Below are positions 40,738 to 62,097 of a stretch of DNA of 64,000 bases, piece after piece; within the stretch, counting starts at the first letter, position 1, and each line of letters opens with the position of its first letter. This DNA comes from Mya arenaria (lineage: Eukaryota > Mollusca > Bivalvia > Myida > Myidae): NCBI RefSeq assembly GCF_026914265.1, contig NC_069126.1, positions 76,573,232 to 76,637,231 on the forward strand. Direction: 5' to 3'. The notes beneath the pieces were generated by a model. That model saw nothing but the letters and a program-made list of their open reading frames with translations, did no database searches and was not told the origin of the DNA. The position numbers and the translations under genes were made by a program.

Positions 40738-41061
40738 GTAAGTTATGTTATGGCATTTATGTTTTATAACTTATCAATTTAATAATGTACACTACGGCCG
40801 GTTGGATTTACAAACTATTAAATGTATAGAGGTGTGATATAAGTGTGATATAGGTATATTCATGTACGTACACATTTTTATATTACATTTTTACAATTGT
40901 GAATACCTTCTGATATTCATACTTGTGTGTATTTCGCAATCCATGACGTTGACAGTTCAACATGATTTGTTATATAAACACAGTTCAAATGTAAATTAAA
41001 TGTCTTATAGATCGACAACAGGTGGGCTTACGGACCCAGGTGCCGACTGAGAGTATCACCA

Positions 41062-43883
41062 ATGTCGAAAATAGCACCGATGATCAGCTACCCCCATGAG
41101 GGGGGCACTACGACGGAGGCCGTGTACCCCCCTTCACAAGGTATGACTGTCACAAACCCTTTAATTGTAGCTTTGAACAGTAATGTCACATTTGACACAC
41201 ACGCACGCACGCACGCAAGCACACACGCACCTGATTATGAATAAACTATAGATATAAACTAACTCAAGAGTCAACATTTAATAGAAGTTCCTGGAGTACA
41301 ATTTCTAATTTAAAATCTTATGTCGATTCACATAATGTAGCATTCACCAATCGTTTAATTTTTTTTGCGTTTTCAGCTATTTAAAACACGCTTATAATAT
41401 TGTTATCAGTAATTAATATTTTGCATAAATGCATTATTTATTAAGTAGTTGAGGGCAAATTATCACTAAAAAATTATGTTTGTTATACATGTGTATTTAT
41501 TGATTTTGAATAAGAATGTCACTTTAAGCATACTCCAAACGCACGAGCGTACGAGTGAGTTAATGTTCCCAATAAATGTCAAGGGGTTAAAATTGGAATA
41601 AGACATAGAGATCGAAGGCTTATATGGGGTGTATACATGTTACTTTTCACTGGTTAGAGTTTGTCGTTATTAATGAACATTAGCGTTCAAAATGAAAATG
41701 GTTCCTTTATATTGTATTCTACGGCAGGGGGCATCAGTCTATCTTCCACCCCATATAACATATTCCGACCAAAATAAAGAAAGACGTGTACATGCTGACA
41801 CCTAACTCACGTGTATAGGTGTACAGTTCAAAATGCTTCAAGTATGCTCCTGACTGCAGAGGACTATATTTATCACAATCATTTTCACAATATTTACTCT
41901 CTAAAGGCGGCGCTTACCCCGACGACCCTGCCTATCCACCTCCTCCACCCCCGATGCCGTCGGGATATGCCCCGCCCCAGCATGCCACATTCGGCGTGGT
42001 GGACACTCAGCCCCGCCCCCGAAAGGACAATGACAGCAGCAAGAGTTCCAACTCAACCATCTTCGGCGGTTCATTTGACGATGATGCCGTGAGAAGAGGC
42101 TTTATAAAAAGGGTATGACATTCACTTATATTAGTAATTACTTGTTATATCATTAACTTAAAACTATATATATTAACGATGTAATTAAAGGGTTGATATC
42201 AATCTCTGATTTGGGATATTTTACTAAATCCTAACTAAATATACATACTTTTTTGGTGTTTGCATGTTTGTGTTGACCAATGACAAAAGAGGATTTTTTT
42301 TCAAATTTTCTGTTAATTTATTTTACGTAGATCGATAGTCCATAGAGTATATTTCATTCATTCTATTTTTAACCAGTGCTTACATGTTAAACACATGTCA
42401 GCAGTTAAAGGTAGCATCTATATACTTAAATTGCGGTTGTTTTATGAAAATATGTTTTTTTCTTTCAGGTTTACAGTCTCCTATTCATCCAGCTGCTGTT
42501 TACATTTGGAATAGTTCTTGTTTTCTCTCTCGTGTAAGTAAAACAGTAAACTAAAAGAAAAGAGACCTAAGTGTCGCCCTATAATTGTAACTGTTGAATA
42601 TGATTGTCATGCAAATATAAAAATCGTTTTGCAAGGAGATTCTAAAAAGCTCTGATGATAAGTAAGAAAGCATTTTTCTCATTTTTTTAAATTAGAATAT
42701 TTCATCTGAAATTCAGAAAACTTAATTCTATTCACTCATGTATTTCATTTCAGGACGTCAGTCAAGGAATTTGTTAAAAACAACCCAGCGGTTTTCTATG
42801 CTTCGTTGTAAGAAATATTTTGTTTGGCTTTTATTGTAATTTCTGAGTTAAGTTTCAATATATTAATACCATACGTTTTCATGTTCCCTTCTTTGCATAA
42901 TAGTGCTGGATTTTCTATGTAAATGAATGATCATTCAAATTGCAAACCAGTTAAACGTAGGTTTCATTTATTTCTTATGACGCGAATATTTGAATATATT
43001 ATATATTATGTATATATCCACACAATATAGAAAGAGTATTAGGTTCATAATCATTAAGATTTTTATAATTTTAATCAAATTGACATGTACATTTAAGAAT
43101 GTCGGTATGTTTGGTTTCGTTGTCAAAGTCGAGCGCTGTTTGGACATACCCAATCGATCAATCTACTGTATATACACTAAAATGAAACTTACCATTTAAC
43201 TCATGTTTCAGTGGAGTTTTCATACCAGTATTCATTGTGCTTGTCTGCGTTAAGAAAGTACGGTATGTATTTAAGGAATTGTAAAAGGTTGTTAGTGGTC
43301 AACATAACATTTTGTCTAATGAAATGCAGTATATTTCAAATTTGCCTATACAATTATTACTGATAATTAGCAGTCGGTTGTTATTTATTGCATTCGGGTA
43401 AAAAGCGGTACTAAGATATCGACATTGGTAATGGGTTTAGCTTTCACAATATTATGTAGACCACTTAAAAGATAATGGTTATGCGACTGTGTCGCATCAA
43501 ATCTTTTTTGTTTCAGTACATTCAAACAACCATTAACCATTACTTCTCAAAATAATCAGATCATTTATTTTATTCAAATGCTATACGTTAAACGTCGATC
43601 AATAGGGAATTCAAATGTCGACCATTGTGAAAATACTGCCATCCCATAGGTTCAAAAATGATATCATGATATAAGGGATTCTGTTAACAATCCAGTTAGT
43701 TTTCAACATTCATTTTATGTGAATTGAACATACTTCAGAACAGAGCTGCCATAACGCGTCCAAGTCAATTGTTTACATTTATTTTATTCATTATTTCAGG
43801 AGAAAGCATCCTGCTAATCTTATATGTCTTGCGATTTTCGTAAGTATATAATAAGTGTATGTATTTATGAATAAGTTGAAACT

Positions 43884-43951
<68 letters not shown>

Positions 43952-43955
43952 GTGG

Positions 43956-44036
<81 letters not shown>

Positions 44037-44058
44037 CGACGACGACGACGATGATGTG

Positions 44059-44109
<51 letters not shown>

Positions 44110-44131
44110 CGACGACGACGACGATGATGTG

Positions 44132-44193
<62 letters not shown>

Positions 44194-44197
44194 GTGT

Positions 44198-44269
<72 letters not shown>

Positions 44270-47200
44270 GCTTGTATAGGTATGATAATGAATAGTGATC
44301 AGTATTATCATTGTCTCGTTTCAGACGATAGCGTTTACATACCTGGTAGCAACATTGAGCAGGTTGGTGTCTAGATGCAGCTGTTGTATCTCTAGTCTAC
44401 GTCCGTTTATAAATTAAATGGGTTTTGCCAAATTTATTCTATGTTAAGAGTCTGGCTCCAATTACGAAAACTAGCCTATCTGGAAAGAAAAATCGATATC
44501 GAAAATAAAACAAAAACATTGCATTCATTCAACCTAGCTATTATATGAGTCTGATTACAGTACGTAGATATAAGCATTTCTAAATGTGTGTTATTATTAT
44601 ATTACCATTCGGTTTTTGAGTTATATGTCGGTTTCTATGTATTAGTTAGATAACATGAATTAAATTCTTAATGATTAAGAATGGGCGGAGTGAGCGTAGA
44701 ATACAACCTCATTGGCTGACACATTGTTAAAGCAAAATCTGACGCAGGGATTGTGTATCGGATGTGTGGTAGTGGGTGGACCTTTAAACAGCCACGAAAG
44801 TTAAAATTATTTAGGATTAAGCCTAGTATAGTTAATGATTGCCTATCTGCAATTTCATTGGCTGTAAATGGAGGTTGTATTCATAAATGTTTAAATTCCT
44901 ACATAGGATCTATTTGACACAACCTAATTTGACGGACTTTCCATAAAGTTTTTACACAAATATCTTTAACGAGAGTAGAAAAAAGAACATAAAATGGCCA
45001 AATTTGATTCTATAGGTATTGTCATAGTTACTTTATTTTGCGAATAGAAAACGTGTTATTTAAATGTTTGCAGTTTCTTCGACACTAACAGCGTGATAGT
45101 GGCCGCGGGCATTACGGCCATGCTGTGTCTCGCCATCACGCTGTTCGCCATACAGACCAAGGTAAGGCTCGCCATCACTCTGTTCGCCACACAAACCAAG
45201 GTAAGTCTCGCCATCACGCTGTTCGCCATACAGACCAAGGTAAGGCTCGCCGTCCCGCTGTTCGCTATACAGACCAAGGTATGCAAACAGACCAAGGTAA
45301 GGCTCGCCATCACACTGTTCGCCATACAGACAAAGGTAAGGCTCGCCATCACGCTGTTCGCCATACAGACCTAGGTAAAGCTCGCAATCACGCTGTTCGG
45401 TTCGCCATACAGACCAAGGTTAGGCTCGCCATCACGCTGTTCGCCATACAGACCAAGGTAAGGCTCGCCGTCCCGCTGTTCGCTATACAGACCAAGGTAT
45501 GCAAACAGACCAAGGTAAGGCTCGCCATCACACTGTTCGCCATACAGACAAAGGTAAGGCTCGCCATCACGCTGTTCGCCATACAGACCTAGGTAAAGCT
45601 CGCAATCACGCTGTTCGGTTCGCCATACAGACCAAGGTTAGGCTCGCAATCACGCTGTTCGCCATACAGACCTAGGTAAGGCTCGCCGTCACGCTATTCG
45701 CCACACAGACCAAGGTAAGGCTCGCCATCACGCTGTTCGCCACACAGACCTAGGTAAGGCTCGCCATCACGCTGTTTGCCAAACAGATCAAGGTAAGGCT
45801 TGCCATCACGCTGTTCGCCATACAGTCCTAGGTAAAGCTCGCCATCACGCTGTTCGCCATACAGACAAAGGTAAGGCTCGCCGTCACACTGTTCGCCATA
45901 CAGACCAAGGTAAGGCTCGCCATCAAGCTGTTCGCCACCACGCTGTTCGCAGTACAGACCAAGGTAAGGCTCGCCGTCATGCTGTTCGCCATACAGACCT
46001 AGGTAAGGTACGCCATCACGCTGTTCGCCATACAGACCAAGGTTAGGCTCGCCATCACGCTGTTCGCCATACAGACCAAGGTAAGGCTCGCCATCAAGCT
46101 GTTCGCCACCACGCTGTTCGCAGTACAGACCAAGGTAAGGCTCGCCGTCATGCTGTTCGCCATACAGACCTAGGTAAGGTACGCCATCACGCTGTTCGCC
46201 ATACAGACCAAGGTTAGGCTCGCCATCACGCTGTTCGCCATTCAGACCAAGGTAAGGCTCGCCATCTGGCTGTTCGCCAGACAGACCTAGGTAAGTCTCG
46301 CAATCACGCTGTTCGCCATACAGACCAAGGTAAGGCTCGCCATCACGCTGTTCGCCAAACATACCAAGGTTAGGCTCGCCATCACGCTGTTTGCCAAACA
46401 GACCAAGGTTAGGCTCGCCATCACGCTGTTTGCCAGACAGACCAAGGTAAGTCTCGCCATCACGCTGTTCGCCATACAGACCAAGGTAAGGCTCGCCATC
46501 ACGCTGTTCGCCATACAGAGCAATGTTAGACTCGCAATCACGCTGTTCGCCATACAGACCTAGGTAAGGCTCGCCATTACGCTTTCGCCATACAGACCAA
46601 GGTAAGGTAGTTGATAGTTAAACATCCACCGTTTGACACCGAAAACATCGTAACAGTAGAACATCTAATGACAATATCAGTAATATATTTTCATATGCAA
46701 AAAGCATTATCGGCCCGAATCATCCTTGATATTTTTTATCCGTCCGCAAACTCGGAGCTGCAACTTCCGAAGGTTATTTAGTCTTTATCATCAGGGACAT
46801 TTGTGTGATTCATATCAAAGAATAACAATTATATGGTTTTACAATAATAATTATATGGTTTTACAATTGGGATTGCATTCACTTATAATTTTGAGGTACA
46901 TATAATTACCAAAAACATGTATTTATTTCATAGCTTACCCATATATTGCTCAAGGGTATTACCACTGTTTGCAGATCGACTTCACCCTATGTACGAGCCT
47001 GTTCTTCTGCATCTTAATCGTCCTCATCTACTTCGCTTTTGTCAGTATCATACTCAGCTTTGTCGTGCCCGACGGACGGGTAAGCTTGTACTCTTGTTAT
47101 CTTGATTTAATTTTGCCTGATTATTGTTTATTTTTGCGAGAAAAAAGTCCAGGTTTAATAATAGCACAGATTCGAGCACAACCTTTAACCTATAAGCATA

Positions 47201-49279
47201 CCGGAGAACAAACGTTATGAAGCATTGTATGCATATTCAAGTGAAGAATATGTGAATGTGTAACAAGCCCATCACTCCGGGCTCACGACAGTGATCTAGC
47301 ATTATCGCGCTGGTGTACGACAGTGTACGAGAGTGATCTAGCATCATCGCTCTGTTGTACGAGAGTGATCTAGCACCATCGCTCTGGTGTACAACAGTGT
47401 ACGAGAGTGATCTAGTATCATCACTCTCGTGTACGAGAGTGATCTAGCATCATCGCTCTGGTGTACGACAGTGTACGAAAGTGATCTAGCATCATCGCGC
47501 TAGTGTACGTGAGTGATCTAGCATTATCGCGCTGGTGTACGAGAGTGATCTAGCATCATCGCTCTGTTGTACGAGAGTGTACGTGAGTTATCTAGCATTA
47601 TCGCGCTGGTGTACGACAGTGTACGAGAGTGATCTAGCATCATCGCTCTGTTGTACGTGAGTGATCTAGCACCATCGCTCTGGTGTACAACAGTGTACGA
47701 GAGTGATCTAGTATCATCACTCTGGTGTACGAGAGTGTACGAGAGTGATCTAGCATCATCGCTCTGGTGTACAACAGTGTACGAGAGTGATCTAGCATCA
47801 TCGCGCTAGTGTACGTGAGTGATCTAGCATCATCGCTCTGTTGTACGAGAGTGATCTAGCCCCATCGCTCTGGTGTACAACAGTGTACGAGAGTGATCTA
47901 GTATCATCACTCTGGTGTACGAGAGTGTACGAGAGTGATCTAGCATCATCGCTCTGGTGTACGACAGTGTATGAGAGTGATCTAGTATCATCACTCTGGT
48001 GTACGAGAGTGTACGAGAGTGATCTAGAATTATCGCGCTAGTGTACGTGAGTGATCTAGCATCATCACTCTGGTGTACGAGAGTGATCTAGCATCATCAC
48101 TCTGGTGTACGAGAGTGTACGAGAGTGATCTAGCATCATCGCTCTGGTGTACGACAGTGTACGGGAGTGATCTAGCATTATCGCGCTAGTGTACGTGAGT
48201 GATCTAGCATTATCGCGGTAGTGTACGAGAGTGATCTAGCATTATCGCTGTGGTGTACGAGAGTGATCTAGTATTATCGTGCGAGTGTACGAGAGTGATC
48301 TAGCATCAACGCTCTGGTGTATGAGGATGTGCGCATAGAAATACATGTACTGCGAAAGGGAAGTATTGGATTCCACTTGTGATGCTTCAAAAGTTATATC
48401 AAAGAAATATGATTGTCAAGTGTTATGTTGTGAAGGATATTAAATCAAAACACTATATTTTTGTAAATGCATTTATTTTTTTACTTTTACTTTTATGTAA
48501 ACTATTGTATGCCTATATGTTTGAAGTACGGTATAATAATCCAAGAAACAAGTACAAACATGTATTCAGTTATTTCCATTTTCCTTTTTGTTTCCCAATT
48601 TTACTTTTAGCCTGCATTTTCACTATATTAAGTCTTCTGTACTATTTCAGTTCATTGACGGCGTGTACGGAACTCTTGCGGCAATGCTCATCTCCTTGGT
48701 GAGGGTTTCTATTTGCTTTTCGTCTGAAGATATATCAAACATTACAGCCGATCCGTACCGCTAATGTGATATTTCCCAGGCTGAGTAGATGAAGTTAGGT
48801 CCGCCTTTCACCCAAGGGAAAGTTTTGCGCTCAACGTCCTCTTGGCCTTTGGAAACAGACGCTAATACTTGATCTTACATTCAAAATATTCGTGTGTGAT
48901 TAGTTGATCAGCCTTATTTAGTTAAAACGTGTTTTGGTTAAATGACCAGTATCTATTTGCTAATTACGATCATACAGATCACATGTGTATGCAAGTACAC
49001 GTATATATATATGTGAACAAAGACGAAAATACTAAAAATGTTGTTGTTCTTTTTAGCCTCTTTTCCGAGTGTGCTTCACAATTAAGCTTAAAAGTAAAAA
49101 CTAAACTAATCTATATCACCTATCGTTTACAGGTCCTTGTGTACGACACCCAGCGGATTATCGGCGGCAAGAGCGAGGAGTTGAACCCAGAAGAGTATGT
49201 GTATGGGGCTCTCCAGCTCTATATTGACGTCGTCGTCTTGTTTCTAATTATCCTGGCCGGCTGTGGAAAATCTGGATGA
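41062..49279 (+). CDS. Lifeguard/TMBIM family protein (Bax-inhibitor-1 fold), 11 coding exons, 306 aa
   Basis: Exons: 41062-41140, 41907-42112, 42469-42533, 42754-42807, 43212-43262, 43800-43839, 44325-44362, 45074-45161, 46975-47079, 48651-48698, 49133-49279. All phases join, with a stop at 49277. Residues 1-95 are a soluble Pro-rich tail (AYPPPPPPMPSGYAPP); seven hydrophobic helices follow (~97-117, 130-148, 156-177, 185-205, 213-236, 246-266, 280-303). LVYDTQRIIGGK with Asp263, EEYVYGALQLYIDVV with Asp290, and the DFTLCTSLFF segment are hallmarks of Lifeguard proteins such as GRINA, FAIM2 and TMBIM1. Family members sit in ER, Golgi or plasma membrane, leak Ca2+ in a pH-dependent way through an Asp pair, and restrain apoptosis. 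Length fits. The end is CGKSG, an unusual tail. The exon-7 donor (AG/GTTGGT) is weak. The exon-8 donor is amplified in the adjoining minisatellite, so that exon's true end is uncertain. Orthology within the family is not resolved. Confidence 0.93.
43884..44271. repeat. (GAT)n microsatellite with duplicated GAC block
   Basis: About 390 bp of GAT repeats in intron 6 of the Lifeguard gene, starting 45 bp after the exon-6 donor. A block GACGACGACGACGACGATGA followed by TGTGTGATGATG occurs twice (about 44034 and 44108), which shows a segmental duplication inside the array. Poly-Asp, poly-Met, poly-Ser and poly-His frames are artefacts. Confidence 0.95.
45129..46610 (+). repeat. 39-bp minisatellite derived from the end of Lifeguard exon 8
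   Basis: About 37 imperfect units. The first unit is itself the exon end: 33 coding bases (LAITLFAIQTK, within TM4) plus GTAAGG of the donor. At 39 bp the units keep frame. Most units retain AAG/GTAAGG or a close variant, while others read CCTAGGTAAG and bring in a TAG. Larger blocks are duplicated inside (offset ~218 bp at 45246/45464 and ~172 bp at 45915/46087). The long minus-strand frames (EQRDGEPYLGLYG repeats) are by-products. Confidence 0.95.
47285..48322. repeat. ~32/45-bp minisatellite in Lifeguard intron 9
   Basis: Units contain GTGTACGAGAGTGATCTAGC followed by ATCATCGCTCTG. A longer version inserts an extra GTGTACGACA-like block. About 27 units are present, including units with ATTATCGCGC in place of ATCATCGCTC. 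The array starts ~200 bp after the exon-9 donor. A single stray unit is found past the gene at 49450-49485. Confidence 0.92.
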
Positions 49280-50061
49280 TCCCATGACGCGTTCGGGACA
49301 CACAAGTATAGGCAATTGTAACGAGCTTCGCGATATAACCGAGTGGGATCCGGTCGTATTATGAGTAGTGGCCAAAACCACTTACAACTTACTTCGTCCA
49401 TACATTATTCCCGATTACTTGTTGTCTCAAACATACTTCAATTGAATCTATCACGCTCTGGTGTACGAGAATGGTCTAGCATACTTCAATCTATATGATT
49501 CGTTCAAGTCTCATAGTGTTGGGTGAAAGCTATACATGTTCTACACTGGACTATTCTCTTTGTTTGACATTTTCATTAAGTACCCTTGGCATTTACGGTG
49601 CTCATGTACGCATTAATTCATCATGTAATGAGATTTATGCAGTGTTTATTGGACCTGCAGATTACTGGAATTTGACGTGTCCCTAGACTATTTTGTATCC
49701 AAGGTGTCATAAGGTCTACCAAGTAATACACGGGCTCTAGTTCATTCATTGGCATTGTACTCTCTCTCTTGTAAGCAATATTTATTTTGCACCAAGCCCC
49801 AAAAGGCTCGACAAAGCGGATGACGGACGAATGCTATCAAACATGTCGAGGTTGCCATCATTCATCATCCGCATTCCAGTATTATCAACAATAGTGGGCG
49901 CCGCATTGAAGTGCACGCCAATTGGAACCCCTGGAATAGGAGCGGTTATTATGTGATTACTGTTGATGGTTTGCTGTTATGTTTTTTTTCTTCATAATTT
50001 GCTGTCATTTTTAAAATATTGCAACAATATTGAATAATGTTTTTTATGTTTGAAAATTATA
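49280..50061. other. Lifeguard 3' flank / probable 3' UTR
   Basis: No further coding exon is seen. An isolated copy of the intron-9 minisatellite unit (ATCACGCTCTGGTGTACGAG, then AATGGTCTAGCA) lies at 49450-49485. A clear polyadenylation site is not evident close to the stop codon. Confidence 0.45.
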
Positions 50062-50862: not shown

Positions 50863-51659
50863 CTTACATACAACACACTCTATTTAGCATGTGCATGTAA
50901 TTATATATCCATACCACCAGGACCCCGTACCATATAGGTTGGCTTACTCGTAAACCTTACGCCGCTTAAGAGTGCTCAGGTGCACACGTAAAGTCACGGG
51001 CATAATCTATGCAATAAATGTCCCTTCAATATAAAAATACACGCAATTTACGCACAAAACGAGGTTACGTCTGCAAATTTTCGATCTTAAGCCATTCGAT
51101 CTTTATAGAACCGGGACCCAGGTCGTCTGTTATGTAGTTTTGAAGTCGTTCTTGCATACCTGGAGCTGTGTCATCAAAGATACTAGGAGTGATTTCATAC
51201 CTAGAAGCGACCTTTAACAGAGCACTACTGCTGTTGAAAGGCTCTCCCTAGTAGCATACTTTTTATGTTATGTTTGTTTTTGCTTTACTAAACCATTCGG
51301 TCGGGTTAAGCTGGGTGCCATAGTTGTTGACTAAGTCGGGTTAAGCTGTGTGCCATAGTTGTAAATATATACATGTTATTGTAGCTTTAACATTTTTACT
51401 GAAATCAACCTTTTCCTCTTTTCTTTGTTTGAGCGATGTGTTTTGTTATGTTGTCATGCAATAAAATATTCGTACAAATGCACCGTTTTATTTCTATAAC
51501 ACGAATTTAAATCCATTTGCTCGTCACGGTCAGTATTTTATGATGATTTTAGCGGGGTACCTTACCGTATTGTTTTAAGAATACGTGTGTTTTCATCACC
51601 CAAACTGTGTGTTTCTTTTCAAATTTCACCGCAGATGTATTGGTGAAAATGTTCGCATT

Positions 51660-52060
51660 TTACAAGAGGCTATTAATTTAGTAAATGAAAATGATATTTT
51701 TTTAATTAATGTGTTTTTCAGACTTCAATAAAGCATTCGACAGTTTAGATAACATGTTTATTTTGAATGTCTTCGAAAATTTAATATCAGTGAAAATATA
51801 ATTAAATGGGTTCGACAACGTTATAACAATGCAAATGCTTGTGTTACCAACAATAGATTCTATCTGACCCTTTTGACATTGAAAAGGGCGTACGGCAAGG
51901 ATGCCCCCTATTTCCATATTTATTTCTTATTTTATTGAAACGCTTGCTGCCAAAATCAACACAAACCAAAACATAAAGGTATAAATGTATATAATACAGA
52001 ACGGAAACAAATTGTATTTGCGGATGACGCCAATTTCCTTATAAATCTTTCGAAGAACTT
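51660..52060 (+). pseudogene. LINE reverse-transcriptase remnant
   Basis: Broken frames read DFNKAFDSLD (polymerase motif A), then IIKWVRQRYNNANACVTNN, then DIEKGVRQGCPLFPYLFLIL (motif B region), then a trace of the FADDAN-type box near 52020. Frameshifts separate the pieces, so it is inactive. The motif wording differs from the larger LINE just downstream, so this is a second family. Confidence 0.75.
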
Positions 52061-52329
52061 ATGACTGTATTGGAAACACCATCGGATATATGTTTAAAAG
52101 GGACACAAAACCCCGATACAATGTGAGAAGTAATATAATTAAAATAAATATGTAAACAGTGGCATTAAAATGCTCAACATACCATATATAGTAGTAATCA
52201 AACAAGTTTGGTAAAAAGAATACTGTTTTACTACCAATCCAAATGGGTCGAACTATAGATGCGAACTGGGAGTAGGATTCAAGGGAGCAGAAACCAAGTA
52301 ATACATCATAAGGCAAGGAAAACTGCTGC

Positions 52330-55106
52330 AAAACAACGTAGACAAAGAGCCAGGCAGATTAACATCGAGTTGAAATTGATCGATGGATTTTGTTTTGAAG
52401 AGGTAAACACTGATAAACATGACAGCTAGACAGCCAAAACGATTATTGACAGGTGAGTGTGTGAAACGATCACGTGACTAGCAAGCTGTTCGAAAAAAGA
52501 TTATTCTGCAAAGAGAGAAACACGGTTAAACGTACCCGTCTAGCGAAAACGCAGGTTATGTATACAAATTAATGGTTTAATGGTAATTGCCGAGTTGCAA
52601 AATGTTCATATGAGAATGCATTACGGGACTTTAATTATCTTAGAAATAATGATTATAGAGTACGACTGGTCGGTGATAAAAAGGCTTCAAGAGCATAACG
52701 AAGAGGACAAAACGACGTTAAAGGGATGCAAAGATTAAGAAATTGAACGATTAAAAGGCAATCAGCCGAAAGAGTTTTGGAAATACTTTGTTAAGGAAAA
52801 GCAAATGAAAGGACAAAATAAAGACGTAAATGAGTTCAAAGAACATTTTGAAAATTTAGCGAGCCAAATCGGACCACAGTATGAGAGAGATTCGGAGAAT
52901 TTTTGTTCTACGGAGCACCCGACTGACACACCGGCATTTCCTGAGCTAGATAGGGGCATAAGTGTTGACGAGGTTAGACGGGCTATTAAGGGACTGAAAC
53001 GGGGAAAGGCTTATGGAACCGACCATTTGATTAATGAGTTTTTCATCGAAGCAGGGGACATAGTCATTGCACACTTAACGGACATTTTTAATATGATTTT
53101 CAATAAAGTTATTTCCCTTCGTTATGGATGCAGGGCATTGTTGTCCCTATCTTTTAAAAGGGCGATGATAGCAATGTGAATAATTACAGAGGAATTACAC
53201 TTTGCAGCTGCCTGTCAAAACTTTTCACATCGGTTTTAAATAATAGGCTGAAGAGTTGGGCCTACGAAAATAGCAACATATCAGACGCACAGTTTGGATT
53301 TCGTCAGGGATTATCAACTACGTATGCTGTTTTCTGTTTGAATAGTATCATACAACACATATTCTTTAAAGGAAAACGCCTATATGCAGCATTTATTGAT
53401 ATGACCAAATGTTTTGACAGTGTATGTAGAAATGGTCTGTGGTACAAGATTTACAAACAACTTGGTTTACGGGGCAAAATGTTTAGAATTATTAAGAACA
53501 TGTATGAAAATGTACGAGTACAGGTACGGCACTGCAATAGTTATTCCGATTTCTTTGAAATAGCTACCGGCTTGAAGCAGGGAGAAATAAGCTCACCTTT
53601 GTTACGGGCCATGTTTATCGAAGATCTAGAATTATGTTTTACAATCTAATCCAGACAGTGGAATCACGTTAAAAACAGATAACTTTGATATTATTCCTTT
53701 ATGCCGACGACATGGTAATATTAGCGAAAACGGCCAAAGATCTACAACGAAGTTTGAACAGTCTATCCGATTATTGCAAGCGTTGGGGTCTGCAAGTCAA
53801 TGTCGATAAAAGTAAAATCATGGTTTTCAGAAAACGAGGAAGGCTGAAACGTGGCGAAAGTTGAACCTATAACGATAAAGTAGTAGGAAAAGTTGACCAA
53901 TTCACGTACCTAGGAACGATATTTAGTAGTAACGGCCAATTCAACAATAACCAGCAAATGCTAGCGGGAAAAGCTTTAAAAGCTATGTATACTTTAAGTG
54001 GAAATTTAAAGGGCTTTGATTTGAGCCCAAAGACACAGTGTGACCTTTTTGACGCGTTTGTTGGTTCGATATTAGGTTATGGGTGTGAAATATGGGGATA
54101 TTCCAATGCTAAAGAATTGGAAAGAGTACATCTGAAGTTTTGCAAGCGTATGCTAGGTGTAAAGCTTTCAACAAGTAATGTAGTTGTTTATGGTGAATTA
54201 GGAAGCTACCCATTGCATATTATAAGACAGACTCGAATGGTGAAATATTGGTTTAAAGTCATCAATACTAACAACTGTGTAATTAAGGCACTTTATGGCG
54301 AATTAGTTGCTGACAACAATATTAGACATTTAGACAACTGGTCGTCAAAGATAAAGGACCTACTTTACAGACACGGTTTCGGGAATGTATGGGAAAATCC
54401 ATCCACTATAAATCCTGACTGTTTTGCTCAATTGTTTAAGCAGCGGCTTGTTGATCACCTCAGCCAAGAATGGCACACTTCCCTCCAAAATAATAACGTA
54501 CTTACTCTATATAAATATGTAAAACCAAATATTGAATATGAACAGTATCTTGACGTTATGAACTCGTTATGGTCGTTACGGGAGAAACCGAGAAGAGAGA
54601 CATGATCGAATATGTGTAATTTGTGATAGCAGGGACATTGAAGATGAGTTTCACTTCATGTTCAAGTGTGATATATATAAAAACATAAGAAAAGATACAT
54701 TAGTCGTTATTACTGGCAGAATCCAAGTATGTTTAAGCTTATAGGACTGTTACAAAGTAAAAATAAGAATGTATTAAACAACCTTTCTTGTTATATAATT
54801 TGTACGATTAAAATAAAAAATAATTTAAACAATACCTAAAGTAAAATACGGTTTCTGTTTATGTTTATTTATACACATGCTATAAAAATATAGTAACATA
54901 ATAAAAGAAGGTTTTCTGAACTTTTTATTTCTACCCTCCACATTGTTTTCTTTGTATTATTATATGTTTTGTTTTATTTTTTGAATGAATTATTTGTATG
55001 TGTATGTGTTTATTGTTTTTGTGTGTATGTACACTTCTCTGATTGTTTGTATGATGAGAGACTATGAAGTCATAAATCAAAATAAACTTCTGTTCTGTTC
55101 TGTATT
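52330..55106 (+). pseudogene. Non-LTR retrotransposon (LINE) ORF2 remnant with 3' end
   Basis: Segments in successive frames: 52805-53179 (pre-polymerase region, GTDHLINEFF); 53176-53649 (NYRGITL, FGFRQGLSTTYAV, AAFIDMTKCFDSV, ATGLKQGEISSPLL); about 53695-53860 (LYADDMVILAKTAKDLQRSL, the catalytic box); 53958-54605 (thumb and linker, GCEIWGY); about 54600-54680 (CVICDSRDIEDEFHFMFKC, a zinc-binding C-terminus). At least four frame breaks or stops make it non-functional. The tail AATAAACTTCTGTTCTGTTCTG near 55080-55106 looks like a LINE 3' end with a short terminal repeat. The 5' endonuclease part is absent, as in a 5'-truncated copy. The clade is not assignable by eye. Confidence 0.88.
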
Positions 55107-57027: not shown

Positions 57028-60000
57028 ATGTGCCATACATTTCATCCTGTTCTTCTGTATATCTACTGCATGTGTGGGGTTGTAGCCATGGTAACATGGT
57101 TGCCCCGGAGAGTACGGAGGAAATTGCGAGGTGGTTCAGACTGGGTGTCAACACTTTACTACACCCTCTTTTACAACTACTTCACATCTTTATACGTTGC
57201 TCTAGAAGTCATGCTTGAGCCACTGTTTTGGTTTGTGGAGAAGTTTGCTAAATACCTTGGTCCAGTAAGTGTTGTTATAATTTGTACCATGTTCATGAAA
57301 GATTAATGATAATGCAAAAAATAACAATCAAACAAGTGGATGTTATATTCTGACTGTCTCTTCATTTTATAGTGTATGTTTAGTGGATGTTATTGCATTC
57401 TGTAAATATTGACATAAATTTATGAGACACCTATATTCACAAGACATTTAAATTCATCCCTGTGTTCTCAATATATACCATTTTATTCTGATTTTACAGG
57501 TGTTTGTTACCTTGGTAGTGGTTATGACAACGTCTGTGGTTACGATATTCTATGTGTGCCTTTTGCCCCATGTATACACCACCAGCCTGCCCTGGACCAT
57601 TTTCCACCTGATATTCGGGCACTGGCTGCTGGTGAACATTGTCTTTCATTACCTGATGGGAGTGTTTTCACAACCGGGTACACCACCACCACAAGTAAAG
57701 TTTTTTATTTAAGATTTTGTAACCAAAAAATACATGTTATATGCAGCTGCTGTTTCAATTATGCTGAAATAGAAAGAATTTCCTGTAAGTCTCAATTATT
57801 GTAGACTGACCATGATTTGGGTTGCGTTTATAGAGCGGTACATGCATGATTCCTTTTTATTTGTCATTGTAATAAGTACTTTAAGTAAGGACACAATAGT
57901 GATATATCAATCACCCGAATTGTTCATCAAGGAATATCTGGTCTATAAAGCAGCTTATGCTATATTTGAAATAAGTTTGTGTAAATGTTCAGAGTCTGAA
58001 CTTCAGACAAACGATATAAAATGCTGTATCCTTACTTTTCAAATGGGACATGGCAAAACTCTTCAAAGCTATAACAGTGAACTCTCTGTTTTTACCTGTA
58101 TTTTACAGAATGTTCCTGAGATAGTATCAGTGTGTAAAAAGTGTATTTCCCCGAAGCCTCCCCGCACCCATCACTGTACCATATGTGGAAAATGCATACT
58201 CAAGATGGACCATCACTGTCGTATCCTTACATGTGCAGTATAATAGTAGTCCTTTCACTGCAATGTTATTTCATATTCAGCTTGACTGTTTTTAACAAGT
58301 CTATAATGTTAGTACTTGATTTCATTCTTGTACTAATCGCTATCTTTATTTTTTAAGTTTAAGCAAGTGAATTGAACATGGTCGAGCAACAGAATTTTGA
58401 TGTCAAAATTTATTAGAAATGAATTAAATAAAGTCTAAAATAGCCAGTCGTCGATCATTTTGGCTTTGGCACCAGCCCTTAGGTCAGATTTGTTTTATTT
58501 TCGATATGTTCACATGTACATGTATAAATGTAGATCAATGGTACGTGTAGTATTATGAGAAAGTAGCTTGTTAGTCAGTTTTCAGTCAGCCTCGTTCACC
58601 CTTGACCATTGTCCAGCATGGCTGAACAACTGTGTTGGCCACAATAACCACCGCTATTTCTTCCTGTTCTGTGTTTACATGTGGATGGGTACGATCTATG
58701 TCAGCTGGGTTGGACATGACCTCTTCAGGCAGCATTTCTATGGAGACGAGGTATGAAGGCTTGCACTATATAGATATTTTATTCGAATTTGTTTTCACCT
58801 AAGAAACGGTTTATAGCTGGTACTTAATGGTTTTTATCCATTCATTGGCTGATGCCATGCTTTTTTTTACATGGTATTCTGGAAAGAATTTTACGACTGT
58901 GCAAGTTCTGTCAGTTTATACACATGTACAATTACATAAGCATAGTCTTTTGTGTAGGAAAAAATTGAAATTCCTAGTGTACAACCTGCTCAGGTTTATG
59001 ACAATTACAATATTGCACTTTGATTGGATTAGCGTGCAGTTATTTACCAATGGTTATTATTGACTATTATTATATACAAATTTATGTTATTGAATTTATA
59101 GCGCTCTTAATCAATAAATACTTGACTGCAAAAAATATTACTAATGAGCAGTCATCGAAATTAGTCTTTTGGATAAACAAGCCTGAATTCTTACTCTAGT
59201 GCTTGGCATTTCATTTTTGAACAAGCCCTGCTATATAAAACCCAGAATTTGAGCAAGCCTGGAAATCATTTTACCAGTGCTGGGCTTGTGCTAATTTTGA
59301 CCACTGCGATAAGTAATAAATGTGAATTGATTACATTATTCCACATGTTGATGCTGTATAACACAGTAGGGTGTGTTTGCCAATATTCCATGACATACAA
59401 TTTGCCTGCATGCCCTCCTGCAGCTATAAATCAGTTAACAAGAACACTAATTATAAAGTGACCAATTAAAAAATATACATTTGTATTTGTGACTCTATCA
59501 ATCTGGAAAAGAATTGTTATTGTATTTTTTCTCTATTGATTGAGCCAATAGCGCAATTTCATATGGAATAAAGCTATTACTTACTATTAAACTAACTAAA
59601 TGAACATGTATCTATTGGGCGAATGATTTGTAGAAGCAAAACAAATGTATTTTCTGTTCGATATTTCAGCCCACAGCATTCCCACCCTTGTTCTATCCAC
59701 TGAATGCCATCCACGATGCCATATACAGGTCGAATGTGAGTATGCAAAACTGATACATTTTAATGAAGTTAAATAAAACAAATGATCAAACTTCACAGAA
59801 AATTACTGGTATATTTTTGTAATCATTCAACTTTATGCTAAACCATTTGTATTATGAATAAAATACAATTCATTGCATAATTTAATGCATAGTAATCAAA
59901 TATGTTTCCATAGCATCAATGGAACTATTATGCTTAAATTTTCAATCAAACATATAAAAGAGATGGAAACATATTCTAACAAACTATTCAAATAAAAAAA

Positions 60001-61824
60001 CCCATAAAGTTTGTGTGGGTTAAACAACTACAAATGCAACTAAATTTCAAGACATGCAAGTAGTATTGTACGTACAACTACATCGTCATGTTCGTGACCT
60101 CACAAATGGCCACACAAATGCATTCAGTTTTTACGTTAGGCTATTAGGCTTAAATGTTCCTATCTCTTTTAAATGGAATGATATTACCTTGAAATTTTCA
60201 GGATTGTTGTTTAAAGCACTGACATTCCAGAAAAAACTGGTTATAGATATATCTGTGTACTTTAGTGTACCTCAATCTATACTTGAACTGTTACTTTCTA
60301 TTCTTGTCCTAGGATCCAGCAAAACCAATGTCAATTATCATCAATCCAAATCCACCTCCAAAGGAAAACTACATAGAGCATTACTACCACATAGCAGTAC
60401 TGTATGAGTTTATCCTGTGTTCCGGGGTCACCCTGGCCCTGGGGCTGCTCATGTTGTGGCATGCCAGGCTTATCTCCAAGGGTGAGACCAGTATCGAGGT
60501 GCACATCAATAATACACAGAGAAAGAAGTACAAGAAGAAAAACTTGGTAATTGTAATCCATTTTACAATTATTCTTTCGTTGTATAAGAAAATGTATCTC
60601 CTAAAAAAAAGGTGTCTATCCCTACCAAAGGAACTTTCTTGTGGCCTCTCAAAAGGGACCCTAGGTCTGGTGTCTACCATGGAAACAAAATTATGTATGA
60701 TTTAATAAGCTTTCAGCTTTTAACACAAACAAGATGATTTTTTATGCCCCCAAAGGAAGATGTATTAAAATCACTGTTTGACTGACCTTCGGTGTCTTCG
60801 CTGTAACTTTTATCTGACACAGAGTGATTATGAAATTTATTGGCACATGTGTTCAGTACATACAGGAAAGGTGTCATGTGCAAGACCTATGACCCTACAT
60901 CAAGGTTCAAGGTCACACTTTGAGTTCAATTATGGAATGCTGCATATTCAGTATACATGTAGTTGGTCGTGTCTGGGCTGTATTTTTGTCATGCAGGGAG
61001 AGATTTTAAAATTTTATTGGCACATGTGTTTGATACATAAAGAAGATGTGTCTGGTGCAAGACCCATGTCCCTATCTCTTCATACACCACTCCTCCGCAC
61101 TTGACATCAACCAACATGGTGGCCGGCATTTGCTTCAAGTTTATTATAGCTCTTCCTGAGTGAAGGCATATTATGAAATTAATAATTGCATAATCCATTG
61201 ATGGCACTTTGGGGGCACTCATTACTTACTGTGACAGCTCTTGTTTTAAGTATAAACTCAAAAAAGGGCAGTAGTGTATTTCATAATTGCTTAGAAGTTT
61301 AAGAAATCCACTTTATATCATCATTGTGTTGATTAACAAATAACTTAGCCATTTCAGCAGAGTGAACACTTACCCTTTATCCTTTTTTATTTGCGTAAAG
61401 TAGTGATGAAACATTCTTATTTCAGGTTTACAGAAACCCATATGACTATGGTTTAAAGAAAAACTGGATGGTGTTTTTAGGTTTCCACAGCTGTAGGTGG
61501 GTATTTCAAGATTTGAGAACATTTTCCAATGAGAACATTTTCTGATTGAAATATGGGTCTGCACAATTTCTAAAGTTGTATGCATAACATATTAAAGTCA
61601 GAACAAGGCTGATATTTTGAATATATTTATGAAAATTAAAGAAATAGTGAAATTTAAATACATTATTTCTTGCATGCATACCCCAGTAATCCAAATGTAT
61701 GTGTTTCAGGACATTTATATGTAAGGTTCTGCTGCCATCCACCCATCCACCAGAGGGAGATGGACTGATCTGGTCTAGAGCTTCCTACAAGTTTAAGCAA
61801 GACAAAGGGTTGCAACTCTTGTGA
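57028..61824 (+). CDS. ZDHHC16: Palmitoyltransferase ZDHHC16-type, 8 coding exons, 387 aa
   Basis: Exons: 57028-57264, 57500-57694, 58109-58220, 58617-58750, 59670-59735, 60313-60546, 61426-61496, 61710-61824. Phases join throughout. The protein transfers palmitate to cysteines of membrane proteins, normally at ER/Golgi membranes. The Cys-rich domain runs [19 protein letters not shown], then [13 protein letters not shown], with nucleophile Cys181. The DHHC codons end exon 3 and Pro182 spans the junction. TM helices are at ~81-105, 115-136, 190-212 and 280-300. TSIE (308-311) stands where many relatives have TTxE, and [11 protein letters not shown] (330-340) is the conserved C-terminal motif. 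The length is near the ~377 aa of vertebrate ZDHHC16, and GETSIE plus NPYDYG point to that member. A TGA lies directly before the chosen ATG; an internal ATG at 57088 has a stronger start context and would give 367 aa. The last sense codons and stop lie in the first unit of a 33-bp minisatellite. Confidence 0.93.
60735..61248 (+). repeat. Dispersed repeat fragment in palmitoyltransferase intron 6
   Basis: It begins TTTTATGCCCCCAAAGGAAG and ends TTTGGGGGCACTCATTACTT followed by GTGACAGCTCTTGTTTTA. Two internal ~170-bp imperfect units share TTATTGGCACATGTGTT and 'GTGCAAGACC'. The ends resemble those of other clam repeats in this window. Confidence 0.65.
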
Positions 61825-62097
61825 TGACAGTTATACAAAGGGCTGCAACTCTTGTGATGACAGTTATACAAAGGGCTGCAACTCTTGTGATGACAGTTAT
61901 ACAAAGGGCTGCAACTCTTGTGATGTCAGTTATACAAAGGGCTGCAACTCTTGTGATGACAGTTATATAAAGGGATGCAACTCATATGCCAAGGAATACG
62001 AAGGGATGCAACTCTTGTGATGATAGTTGTATGTTTGCAATACTTTTGATAACAGTAATATGAATTGGTGCAACTCTTATGGCAACAGTTTATCAAA
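61802..62097 (+). repeat. 33-bp minisatellite starting in the palmitoyltransferase stop region
   Basis: Five close units (61802-61966) of ACAAAGGGCTGCAACTCTTG plus TGATGACAGTTAT are followed by about four decayed units. The first unit contains the gene's last codons and its TGA. Units are 33 bp, a multiple of three, so any stop-loss in unit 1 would meet the TGA of unit 2 in the same frame. Confidence 0.92.

What the first reader, a model, noticed from the sequence alone, without database searches (positions are those of the whole stretch)
45129..46610. A minisatellite made of an exon end plus its splice donor, in frame
The 39-bp unit equals the last 33 coding bases of Lifeguard exon 8 plus GTAAGG. 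Because 39 is a multiple of three, donors ending at 45161, 45200, 45239, 45278, 45296 and 45335 are all in phase and precede the first TAG (45372-45374). They would add 0, 13, 26, 39, 45 or 58 residues to the end of TM4. The donor after 45200 (CCAAG/GTAAGT) matches the consensus better than the first one. About 30 further donor-like sites follow, possibly acting as decoys. The first donor is favoured only because it gives the family's usual length.
Basis: partly seen in the sequence, partly recalled or inferred. Interest (0 to 1): 0.9.

Follow-up and report, generated by a model that had tools for sequence, protein, structure and literature searches.

The report
Splice-donor minisatellite in clam Lifeguard gene
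In the soft-shell clam, the last bases of one exon together with its splice signal stand in 38 tandem copies running into the following intron, a known but little-studied kind of repeat that leaves the cell to pick the right splice site from dozens of similar ones.

Summary
The window is Mya arenaria, contig C5, with an 11-exon Lifeguard (TMBIM/LFG) gene. Exon 8 (45074-45161) runs into 38 tandem units (45129-46607) whose consensus equals the last 33 coding bases plus GTAAGG, 39/39. Donors 45161, 45200, 45239, 45278, 45296 and 45335 share one frame before TAG 45372-45374, as claimed.

The "isoform ladder" is unproven and not favoured. The annotated Mya protein uses the first donor, none of 120 listed homologues has extra residues at that junction, units show no codon-position bias or extra donor conservation, and the open run of six units is within chance (P=0.12). 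No RNA could be examined.

The kind is known: lancelet "mirage" minisatellites and the human IFI6 donor minisatellite. What this adds is recurrence in this genome: MED17 (47-bp unit, consensus 47/47) and a cathepsin L-like gene (44-bp unit) carry the same structure, with lengths that are not multiples of three. The annotated MED17 protein also uses the first donor.

Most likely a neutral mirage minisatellite, spliced mainly from the first donor. The puzzle is how position selects it.

The parts
41062..49279 (+). Lifeguard (LFG/TMBIM) gene, 11 coding exons, 306 aa: 41062-41140, 41907-42112, 42469-42533, 42754-42807, 43212-43262, 43800-43839, 44325-44362, 45074-45161, 46975-47079, 48651-48698, 49133-49279
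   Evidence: Exon assembly with GT/AG at every junction and one open frame; Pfam PF01027 E 1.4e-32; Mya protein P0001 matches it apart from its first residues and the skipped exons 3-6
45074..45161 (+). Exon 8 (88 nt), ends phase 0 at ...QTK; its last 33 nt are the founder of the array
45129..46607 (+). Minisatellite of 38 units (39 bp typical) = last 33 nt of exon 8 + GTAAGG; consensus 39/39 equal to the exon copy
45162..45167 (+). Donor 1 (AAG|GTAAGG), used in the annotated protein
45201..45206 (+). Donor 2 (AAG|GTAAGT), in frame, +13 residues, stronger than donor 1
45240..45245 (+). Donor 3, in frame, +26 residues; unit is an exact copy of unit 1
45279..45284 (+). Donor 4 (GTATGC, weak), in frame, +39 residues
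45297..45302 (+). Donor 5, in frame, +45 residues (18-bp short unit)
45336..45341 (+). Donor 6, in frame, +58 residues; last before the stop
45372..45374 (+). First in-frame stop (TAG, from AAG in unit 7)
45207..45642 (+). Six-unit, 218-bp segment duplicated perfectly (45207-45424 = 45425-45642, 218/218)
45916..46257 (+). Four-unit, 171-bp segment duplicated (45916-46086 / 46087-46257, 170/171)
46975..47079 (+). Exon 9 with the acceptor that all donors would share

Best explanation
It is an exon-boundary ('mirage') minisatellite. Shown: a 39-bp piece holding the last 33 bases of Lifeguard exon 8 and the first 6 bases of the intron exists in 38 tandem units; the array contains duplicated blocks of four and six units; it is absent from the one paralogue examined. 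Inferred: the founder was duplicated in tandem once and then expanded by slippage or unequal exchange, while selection kept only the true exon copy. The other units drift neutrally, losing frame and gaining stops. Inferred: splicing joins mostly the first donor (45161) to the acceptor at 46975, and the rest of the array is removed as intron. Exact-copy units share 33 exonic and 6 intronic bases with the true donor, so what picks it must lie outside the unit: the upstream 55 nt of the exon, pairing with the upstream acceptor across a short exon (exon definition), or being transcribed first. Use of donors 2-6 would give longer proteins. Use of those tested from unit 7 on gives a premature stop after residue 277 and probably decay of the transcript (general knowledge).
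For: Origin: consensus 39/39 equal to exon end + donor, 5 of 38 exact copies; the exon end is conserved in the family (QTKIDF in 76 of 120 homologues); the paralogue at C5:27402800-27406500 has the same intron position and TRF finds no repeat there. Growth: 218/218 and 170/171 block duplications. Neutral decay: substitutions in the exon part of the 37 other units fall 21/19/24 on codon positions 1/2/3 (chi-square p 0.74); donor hexamer changed at 18 of 222 sites against 64 of 1178 elsewhere (Fisher p 0.12); 12 of 38 units broken by stop or length, first-six-open run P 0.12. First-donor use: Mya protein P0001 reads ...AIQTKIDFT..., on a contig of 80,778,335 bases, the length of C5; 0 of 120 homologues have an insertion at the junction. 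Recurrence: MED17 (unit consensus 47/47 equal to exon end + intron start, 16 of 23 downstream donors as good as the first, annotated protein P0121 uses the first) and a cathepsin L-like gene (43.7 copies of 44 bp between two protease exons). The genome is full of minisatellites: 40 arrays, 32.4 of 200 kb, in 20 arbitrarily placed 10-kb pieces. Precedent: lancelet mirages are reported not to disturb regular splicing (PMC3087553 passages; PMC3902484 passage).
Against: No RNA reads could be examined, so first-donor use rests on gene models, on protein families and on precedent. P0001 lacks exons 3-6 and has a different 5' end, so the model is imperfect, and repeats were masked before annotation, which could bias it to the first donor. 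In human IFI6 two downstream units are reported as used donors (PMC4526556 passage), and PMC3087553 itself says that mirage splice signals could be used as cryptic sites. An exonic enhancer between two competing donors is reported to favour the intron-proximal one (PMC5585400 passages); the copied exon pieces could act so, favouring a downstream unit. Synonymous changes are 5 of 12 in units 2-6 (p 0.32), 25 of 70 in units 7-38 (p 0.10) and 23 of 61 over distinct variants (p 0.058), against 0.265 expected: not significant, but all on the side of constraint. None of 70 TRF rows in the 20 sampled pieces carries a strong donor octamer, so donor-bearing arrays are a small minority.
Confidence: 0.8

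Rival explanations
1. Functional isoform ladder: donors 1-6 are all used, adding 0-58 residues after TM4 in a regulated or individual-specific way, as a length-tunable membrane protein.
For: All six donors are in frame, and four of the five extra ones score as well as or better than the true one; human IFI6 is a precedent for downstream units serving as donors; a weak, non-significant synonymous excess.
Against: No homologue of 120 has an insertion at the junction; the Pfam Bax1-I score falls from 113.6 to 101.9-104.5 in the three longer forms scanned and the match splits in two; annotated protein uses donor 1; no significant coding constraint; the open run is expected by chance at P 0.12; sister arrays in MED17 and a cathepsin gene are not multiples of three.
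Confidence: 0.1
2. U1 decoy array: the 37 extra donors bind U1 snRNP without being spliced, and thereby regulate splicing or protect the intron from premature polyadenylation.
For: By matrix, 19 of 39 downstream sites are as good as the exon's own donor; by U1 pairing, 6 of the 9 downstream units computed are.
Against: The donor hexamer is no better conserved than the rest of the unit. The intron has no AATAAA or ATTAAA to protect against. Donor-bearing arrays are not in consistent genome-wide excess over the reversed pattern: 273 against 393 matches for CAGGTAAGT, but 761 against 301 for AAGGTAAGT and 3044 against 889 for AAGGTAAG, the last two listings being dominated by single huge arrays.
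Confidence: 0.06
3. Assembly artefact: the array length or the perfect 218-bp duplication is a product of assembling noisy long reads.
For: A perfect 218/218 block copy next to diverged units; no second assembly could be examined.
Against: Assembly is PacBio with linked-read polishing (PMC10663159 passages); units differ from each other; minisatellites are common in the sampled genome. The copy number could be wrong, hardly the structure.
Confidence: 0.03
4. Reverse origin: a pre-existing minisatellite was recruited as the end of exon 8.
For: Exon end and units are identical, so sequence identity alone gives no direction.
Against: The exon end encodes the family motif (QTKIDF in 76 of 120, close variants in most others), and the paralogue fetched has it without a repeat.
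Confidence: 0.01

Closest known systems
Lancelet (Branchiostoma) 'mirage' minisatellites: Adh3, globins BflGb6 and BflGb9, troponin C, PGBD5 (PMC3087553 and PMC3902484, passages seen; Canestro et al. 2002 known only as cited there)
   Same: Tandem minisatellite-like duplication of an exon-intron boundary with the splice signal in many units; reported not to disturb regular splicing; unit length 10-72 bp at Adh3
   Different: Here a mollusc, 38 units (the two BflGb6 haplotypes have 6 and 3), donor side, unit length 39 so the first six donors share one frame; length instability and somatic change not tested here
Human IFI6 (6-16, G1P3) minisatellite providing multiple splice donors (Turri, Cuin, Porter 1995, not held; seen as cited in PMC4526556)
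   Same: Repeat units serving as splice donors, so that several donors compete
   Different: There two downstream units are reported as used, giving three mRNA species; here no use beyond the first is known. The IFI6 unit sequence was not seen
Human internal tandem repeats at exon-intron boundaries of segmental duplications (PMC2812944, passages seen)
   Same: Minisatellite expansion at an exon-intron boundary altering or creating introns
   Different: Those are recent paralogue differences, on average 30-bp units repeated 4 times
MED17, cathepsin L-like and C1:39076 kb exon-end arrays in the same Mya genome
   Same: Exon end plus donor repeated into the intron, first donor at the array's upstream edge
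   Different: Units of 47, 44 and 52 bp, not multiples of three; the third gene is unidentified

Membership tests
Mirage minisatellite (exon-intron boundary tandem repeat) | Unit spans a real exon-intron boundary | tested here: met
   33 nt of exon 8 + 6 nt of intron, 39/39 consensus
Mirage minisatellite (exon-intron boundary tandem repeat) | Tandem, minisatellite-like array with the splice dinucleotide in the units | tested here: met
   38 units, GT in 38 of 38
Mirage minisatellite (exon-intron boundary tandem repeat) | Regular splicing not disturbed | tested here: inconclusive
   Annotated protein P0001 uses the first donor; no RNA reads available
Mirage minisatellite (exon-intron boundary tandem repeat) | Length instability between alleles, somatic instability | not testable with these tools
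   One haplotype only; block duplications 218/218 and 170/171 fit turnover
IFI6-type multiple-donor minisatellite | Downstream units are used as donors in mRNA | not testable with these tools
   No transcripts held
Lifeguard / TMBIM (PF01027) gene | Pfam Bax1-I above the curated cut-off and conserved QTKxDF junction | tested here: met
   113.6 bits against cut-off 34.1

The most novel reading that the evidence does not exclude
Mya arenaria carries a class of exon-end arrays in working genes (Lifeguard, MED17, a cathepsin, probably others) where up to tens of near-identical donors compete downstream of the true one. The clam's spliceosome ignores them by a position rule (first transcribed, or exon-defined), and in Lifeguard, where frame is kept, some leakage gives individual-specific longer membrane proteins. 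These arrays would be natural minigene series that separate the effect of donor position from donor sequence.
Probability: 0.25. Interest if true: 0.7.

Novelty: new member of a known kind. Interest (0 to 1): 0.5.

Why it matters
How one donor is chosen among several good ones is an old question, usually studied with two sites (general knowledge). Here nature offers 38 unit donors, five of them with the same 33 upstream and 6 downstream bases, at known positions, and similar arrays in two other identified genes. Junction counts from existing RNA-seq would show directly whether the first, the strongest or the last site wins. It also shows that exon-boundary minisatellites, known to me from lancelets and human genes, occur repeatedly in a bivalve, including in MED17, which argues that they are tolerated by-products of a minisatellite-rich genome. 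I saw no report of such arrays in molluscs in the listings (open-licence full text only; one search listed 12 of 63 papers). The one mollusc minisatellite paper looked into (PMC6905558, passages) describes a 27-bp intron repeat in abalone without saying that it holds the splice boundary.

Tried and rejected
RNA secondary structure hiding the downstream donors: the stretch 45100-45380 folds no better than shuffles (z +1.07, 170 of 200 shuffles at least as stable). Rejected.

Rfam element in the window: 0 matches at gathering score.

Polyadenylation signals for a U1-protection role: of five hexamers sought in the intron, only AATATA at 46682.

Genome-wide enrichment of donor-bearing arrays: three sites 20-50 bases apart gave, against the reversed pattern, 1304+1740 against 469+420 for AAGGTAAG (the listed rows are one GTAAG-rich array), 170+103 against 262+131 for CAGGTAAGT, 153+608 against 135+166 for AAGGTAAGT. 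Counts are of overlapping matches, not loci, so no consistent excess is claimed.

The listed rows hold 17 loci by my recount (an earlier notebook entry says 20 or more, which is wrong). I fetched 12 of the 17, not at random: some units looked coding. Two have upstream exons with recognisable protein homology (L030 MED17, L036 cathepsin L-like). Two more look exonic but are unproven (L033, L034). In two the upstream edge was not reached (L029, L039). In the other six (L031, L032, L035, L037, L038, L040) I recognised no exon. L042 (C1:39076 kb) was picked because its unit looked exon-like, a biased pick. Its 63-aa exon found no PDB match, no protein in the large database (where the region was misplaced and covered about 50 of the 63 residues) and only a sub-threshold Pfam hit.

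A Pfam scan of 5 short exon peptides gave no family above its cut-off, though the cathepsin and MED17 exons were recognised by the PDB sequence search. A Pfam scan of the ZDHHC-like end gave nothing. No PDB chain matched the LFG protein by sequence. No structure prediction was run.

A CAGGTGAGT scan (tried once) and a PF10156 (MED17) scan of the genome did not complete, so I cannot say that MED17 is single-copy. The second LFG paralogue hit (C5:61741105) was not fetched.

Full report
What it is. The window maps to contig C5, 76573232-76637231, of a 1.216-Gb, 18-contig assembly. C5 is 80,778,335 bases long, the length of the contig that carries P0001, "LFG2-like protein [Mya arenaria]". The published soft-shell clam genome is 1.22 Gb in 17 phased scaffolds (PMC10663159, passages). 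So the window is Mya arenaria. I assembled an 11-exon gene at 41062-49279 with GT/AG at every junction. It codes for 306 residues with Pfam PF01027 at 113.6 bits.

The repeat. TRF and a unit-by-unit decomposition give 38 units from 45129 to 46607. Their consensus is identical to the last 33 bases of exon 8 plus GTAAGG. Five of 38 units are exact copies, the exon's own included; GT is kept in 38 of 38, and 30 of 37 spacings are 39 bp. GT invariance is not special, because 15 of the 39 columns never show a substitution. The array contains block duplications: 45207-45424 equals 45425-45642 at 218 of 218 bases, and 45916-46086 equals 46087-46257 at 170 of 171. Nothing like it lies elsewhere in the window (best 16 mismatches of 39), and a 327-bp query finds only this array in the genome (7 of 7 reported matches).

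The frame. Donors at 45161, 45200, 45239, 45278, 45296 and 45335 are in one frame and would give 306, 319, 332, 345, 351 and 364 residues. Then TAG follows at 45372. The donor at 45200 is the best of the first six. Of 39 downstream GT sites scoring 6 or more, 19 match or beat the exon's own donor. The scoring matrix and the U1 sequence are recalled, not from a call.

Direction of origin. The exon end encodes ...AIQTK, next to IDF in exon 9. QTKIDF stands in 76 of 120 listed homologues and close variants in most of the others (123 were found, 120 were listed and held, P0001 itself among them). The LFG paralogue on the same chromosome (L028) has its intron at the same place...FAIQTK|...|IDFTMC, and TRF finds no repeat in that 3.7 kb. 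The exon is therefore old and the array new.

Is the ladder used? I could not see RNA. The annotated protein P0001 reads ...LAITLFAIQTKIDFTLC..., the 45161-46975 junction. The published annotation used MAKER with a Trinity transcriptome, but repeats were masked first, and P0001 lacks exons 3-6, so it is fair but not strong evidence. None of 120 homologues has an insertion at the junction; one has a single extra residue four positions on, and seven have deletions of 2-5 residues a little further on. Longer forms (+13, +26, +58) lower the Pfam score from 113.6 to 104.2, 104.5 and 101.9 and split the match. Changes in the 37 other units fall 21/19/24 on the three codon positions, and the donor hexamer is changed at 18 of 222 sites against 64 of 1178 for the exon part. 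Twelve of 38 units are broken by a stop (9) or a length that is not a multiple of three (3). Six intact units in a row at the start have P 0.12 under shuffling. Selection for a ladder is not needed to explain anything seen. A weak excess of synonymous changes (5 of 12 in units 2-6, p 0.32; 25 of 70 in units 7-38, p 0.10; 23 of 61 over distinct variants, p 0.058) is the only hint the other way, and it is no stronger in the units that could be coding.

Is it a one-off? No. In 20 arbitrarily placed 10-kb pieces of this genome there are 40 minisatellites covering 32.4 of 200 kb, so some should hit exon ends by chance; none of the 70 TRF rows there carries a strong donor octamer. I searched the genome for three CAGGTAAGT sites 20-50 bases apart and fetched 12 of the 17 loci in the listed rows, not chosen at random. 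Two are exon ends by homology.

At C11:19104200-19106200 (- strand) the exon ends ...SIQLVAPNND, matching MED17 (E 2e-7). The unit is 47 bp and its consensus over 22 units equals the exon end plus the first 20 intron bases, 47 of 47. The next exon, (R)MLSVRSGP, lies beyond the array. The annotated Mya MED17 (P0121, contig 71,350,902 = C11) reads NNDRMLS like Ruditapes and Mactra, so the first donor is the one used in the model although 16 of 23 downstream sites are as good.

At C8:32093500-32100300 (- strand) a cathepsin L-like exon (E 1.3e-4) ends ...VGNQ, runs into 44-bp units (43.7 copies in L041), and is followed just beyond the array by the exon GQCGSCWAF (Peptidase_C1 6.5e-20 for the two pieces joined). 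Its unit consensus in the first kilobase matches the exon end plus intron start at 39 of 44, and only 3 of 21 downstream sites are as good as the first donor, so this array is more decayed. A further array at C1:39075000-39077600 has a 63-codon open exon and 17 exact AAGGTAAGT sites, mostly at a 52-bp period, but its protein is unidentified. Neither 44, 47 nor 52 is a multiple of three, so the 39 of Lifeguard needs no special reason.

How it likely works. I take it as an exon-boundary ("mirage") minisatellite: one tandem duplication across the boundary, growth by block duplication, neutral decay, and splicing mainly from the first donor. The puzzle is the choice. Units 1, 3, 9, 25 and 35 have the same 33 exonic and 6 intronic bases, so any enhancer in those 33 bases is copied too. 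What marks donor 1 must be upstream in the exon, the exon's short length, or being transcribed first. SRSF1 is reported to activate the intron-proximal and hnRNP A1 the intron-distal of two competing donors, and an exonic enhancer between them to favour the proximal one (PMC5585400, passages). If the copied exon pieces act as enhancers, a downstream unit should win, which would mostly give a premature stop. The simplest reading is that commitment to the first donor happens before or regardless of the rest. This is inference.

What is known. Lancelet "mirages" are the same thing by anatomy: minisatellite-like tandem duplications of exon-intron boundaries in Adh3, globins, troponin C and PGBD5, unstable in length, not disturbing regular splicing, though cryptic use is allowed for (PMC3087553 and PMC3902484, passages). 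Human IFI6 has a minisatellite giving several splice donors, two downstream units being used (PMC4526556, passage; the 1995 paper is not held). Tandem repeats at human exon-intron boundaries are described too (PMC2812944, passages). So the kind is known. The taxon, the array size and the recurrence in one bivalve genome are what this adds.

Noticed in passing
window 61802-62028: A 33-bp minisatellite whose first unit overlaps the end of another coding sequence...[12 protein letters not shown] then TGA, the stop repeated in following units. The gene looks like a ZDHHC palmitoyltransferase ([29 protein letters not shown] near 58208; name recalled, no Pfam hit for the end piece). A second array in this window seeded at the end of a coding part.
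   Followed up: partly
window 47285-48325 and about 49450-49482: LFG intron 9 holds another large minisatellite (42/74 bp); one lone unit that looks related by eye lies in the 3' UTR of the same gene. It does not resemble an exon end by eye.
   Followed up: no
window 43884-44269: About 130 copies of TGA in LFG intron 6, shortly after the exon 6 donor.
   Followed up: no
window 51640-54700: Broken reverse-transcriptase-like open frames, by eye of a LINE-type element, downstream of LFG.
   Followed up: no
L034 (C8:70679700-70681900): A 51-bp array that seems, by eye, to start at a terminal coding exon with a TGA stop inside the first unit; another possible end-of-coding minisatellite.
   Followed up: partly
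L033 (C5:76669500-76671800), about 32 kb beyond the window: A 57-bp donor-bearing array after what looks like a transmembrane-tail exon; unit consensus 55 of 57 equal to the putative exon end plus intron; not proven by homology.
   Followed up: partly
P0001 against window 41010-44362: The deposited Mya LFG2-like protein skips exons 3-6 and starts differently, by eye in an alternative 5' exon; probably a wrong or minor gene model, since the 306-aa form is complete.
   Followed up: partly
L040 (C4:68860400-68864300): A 39-bp array of about 61 units with 41 exact CAGGTAAGT sites, many preceded by an acceptor-like CTATTGCAG, resembling a chain of recursive-splice-like sites.
   Followed up: no
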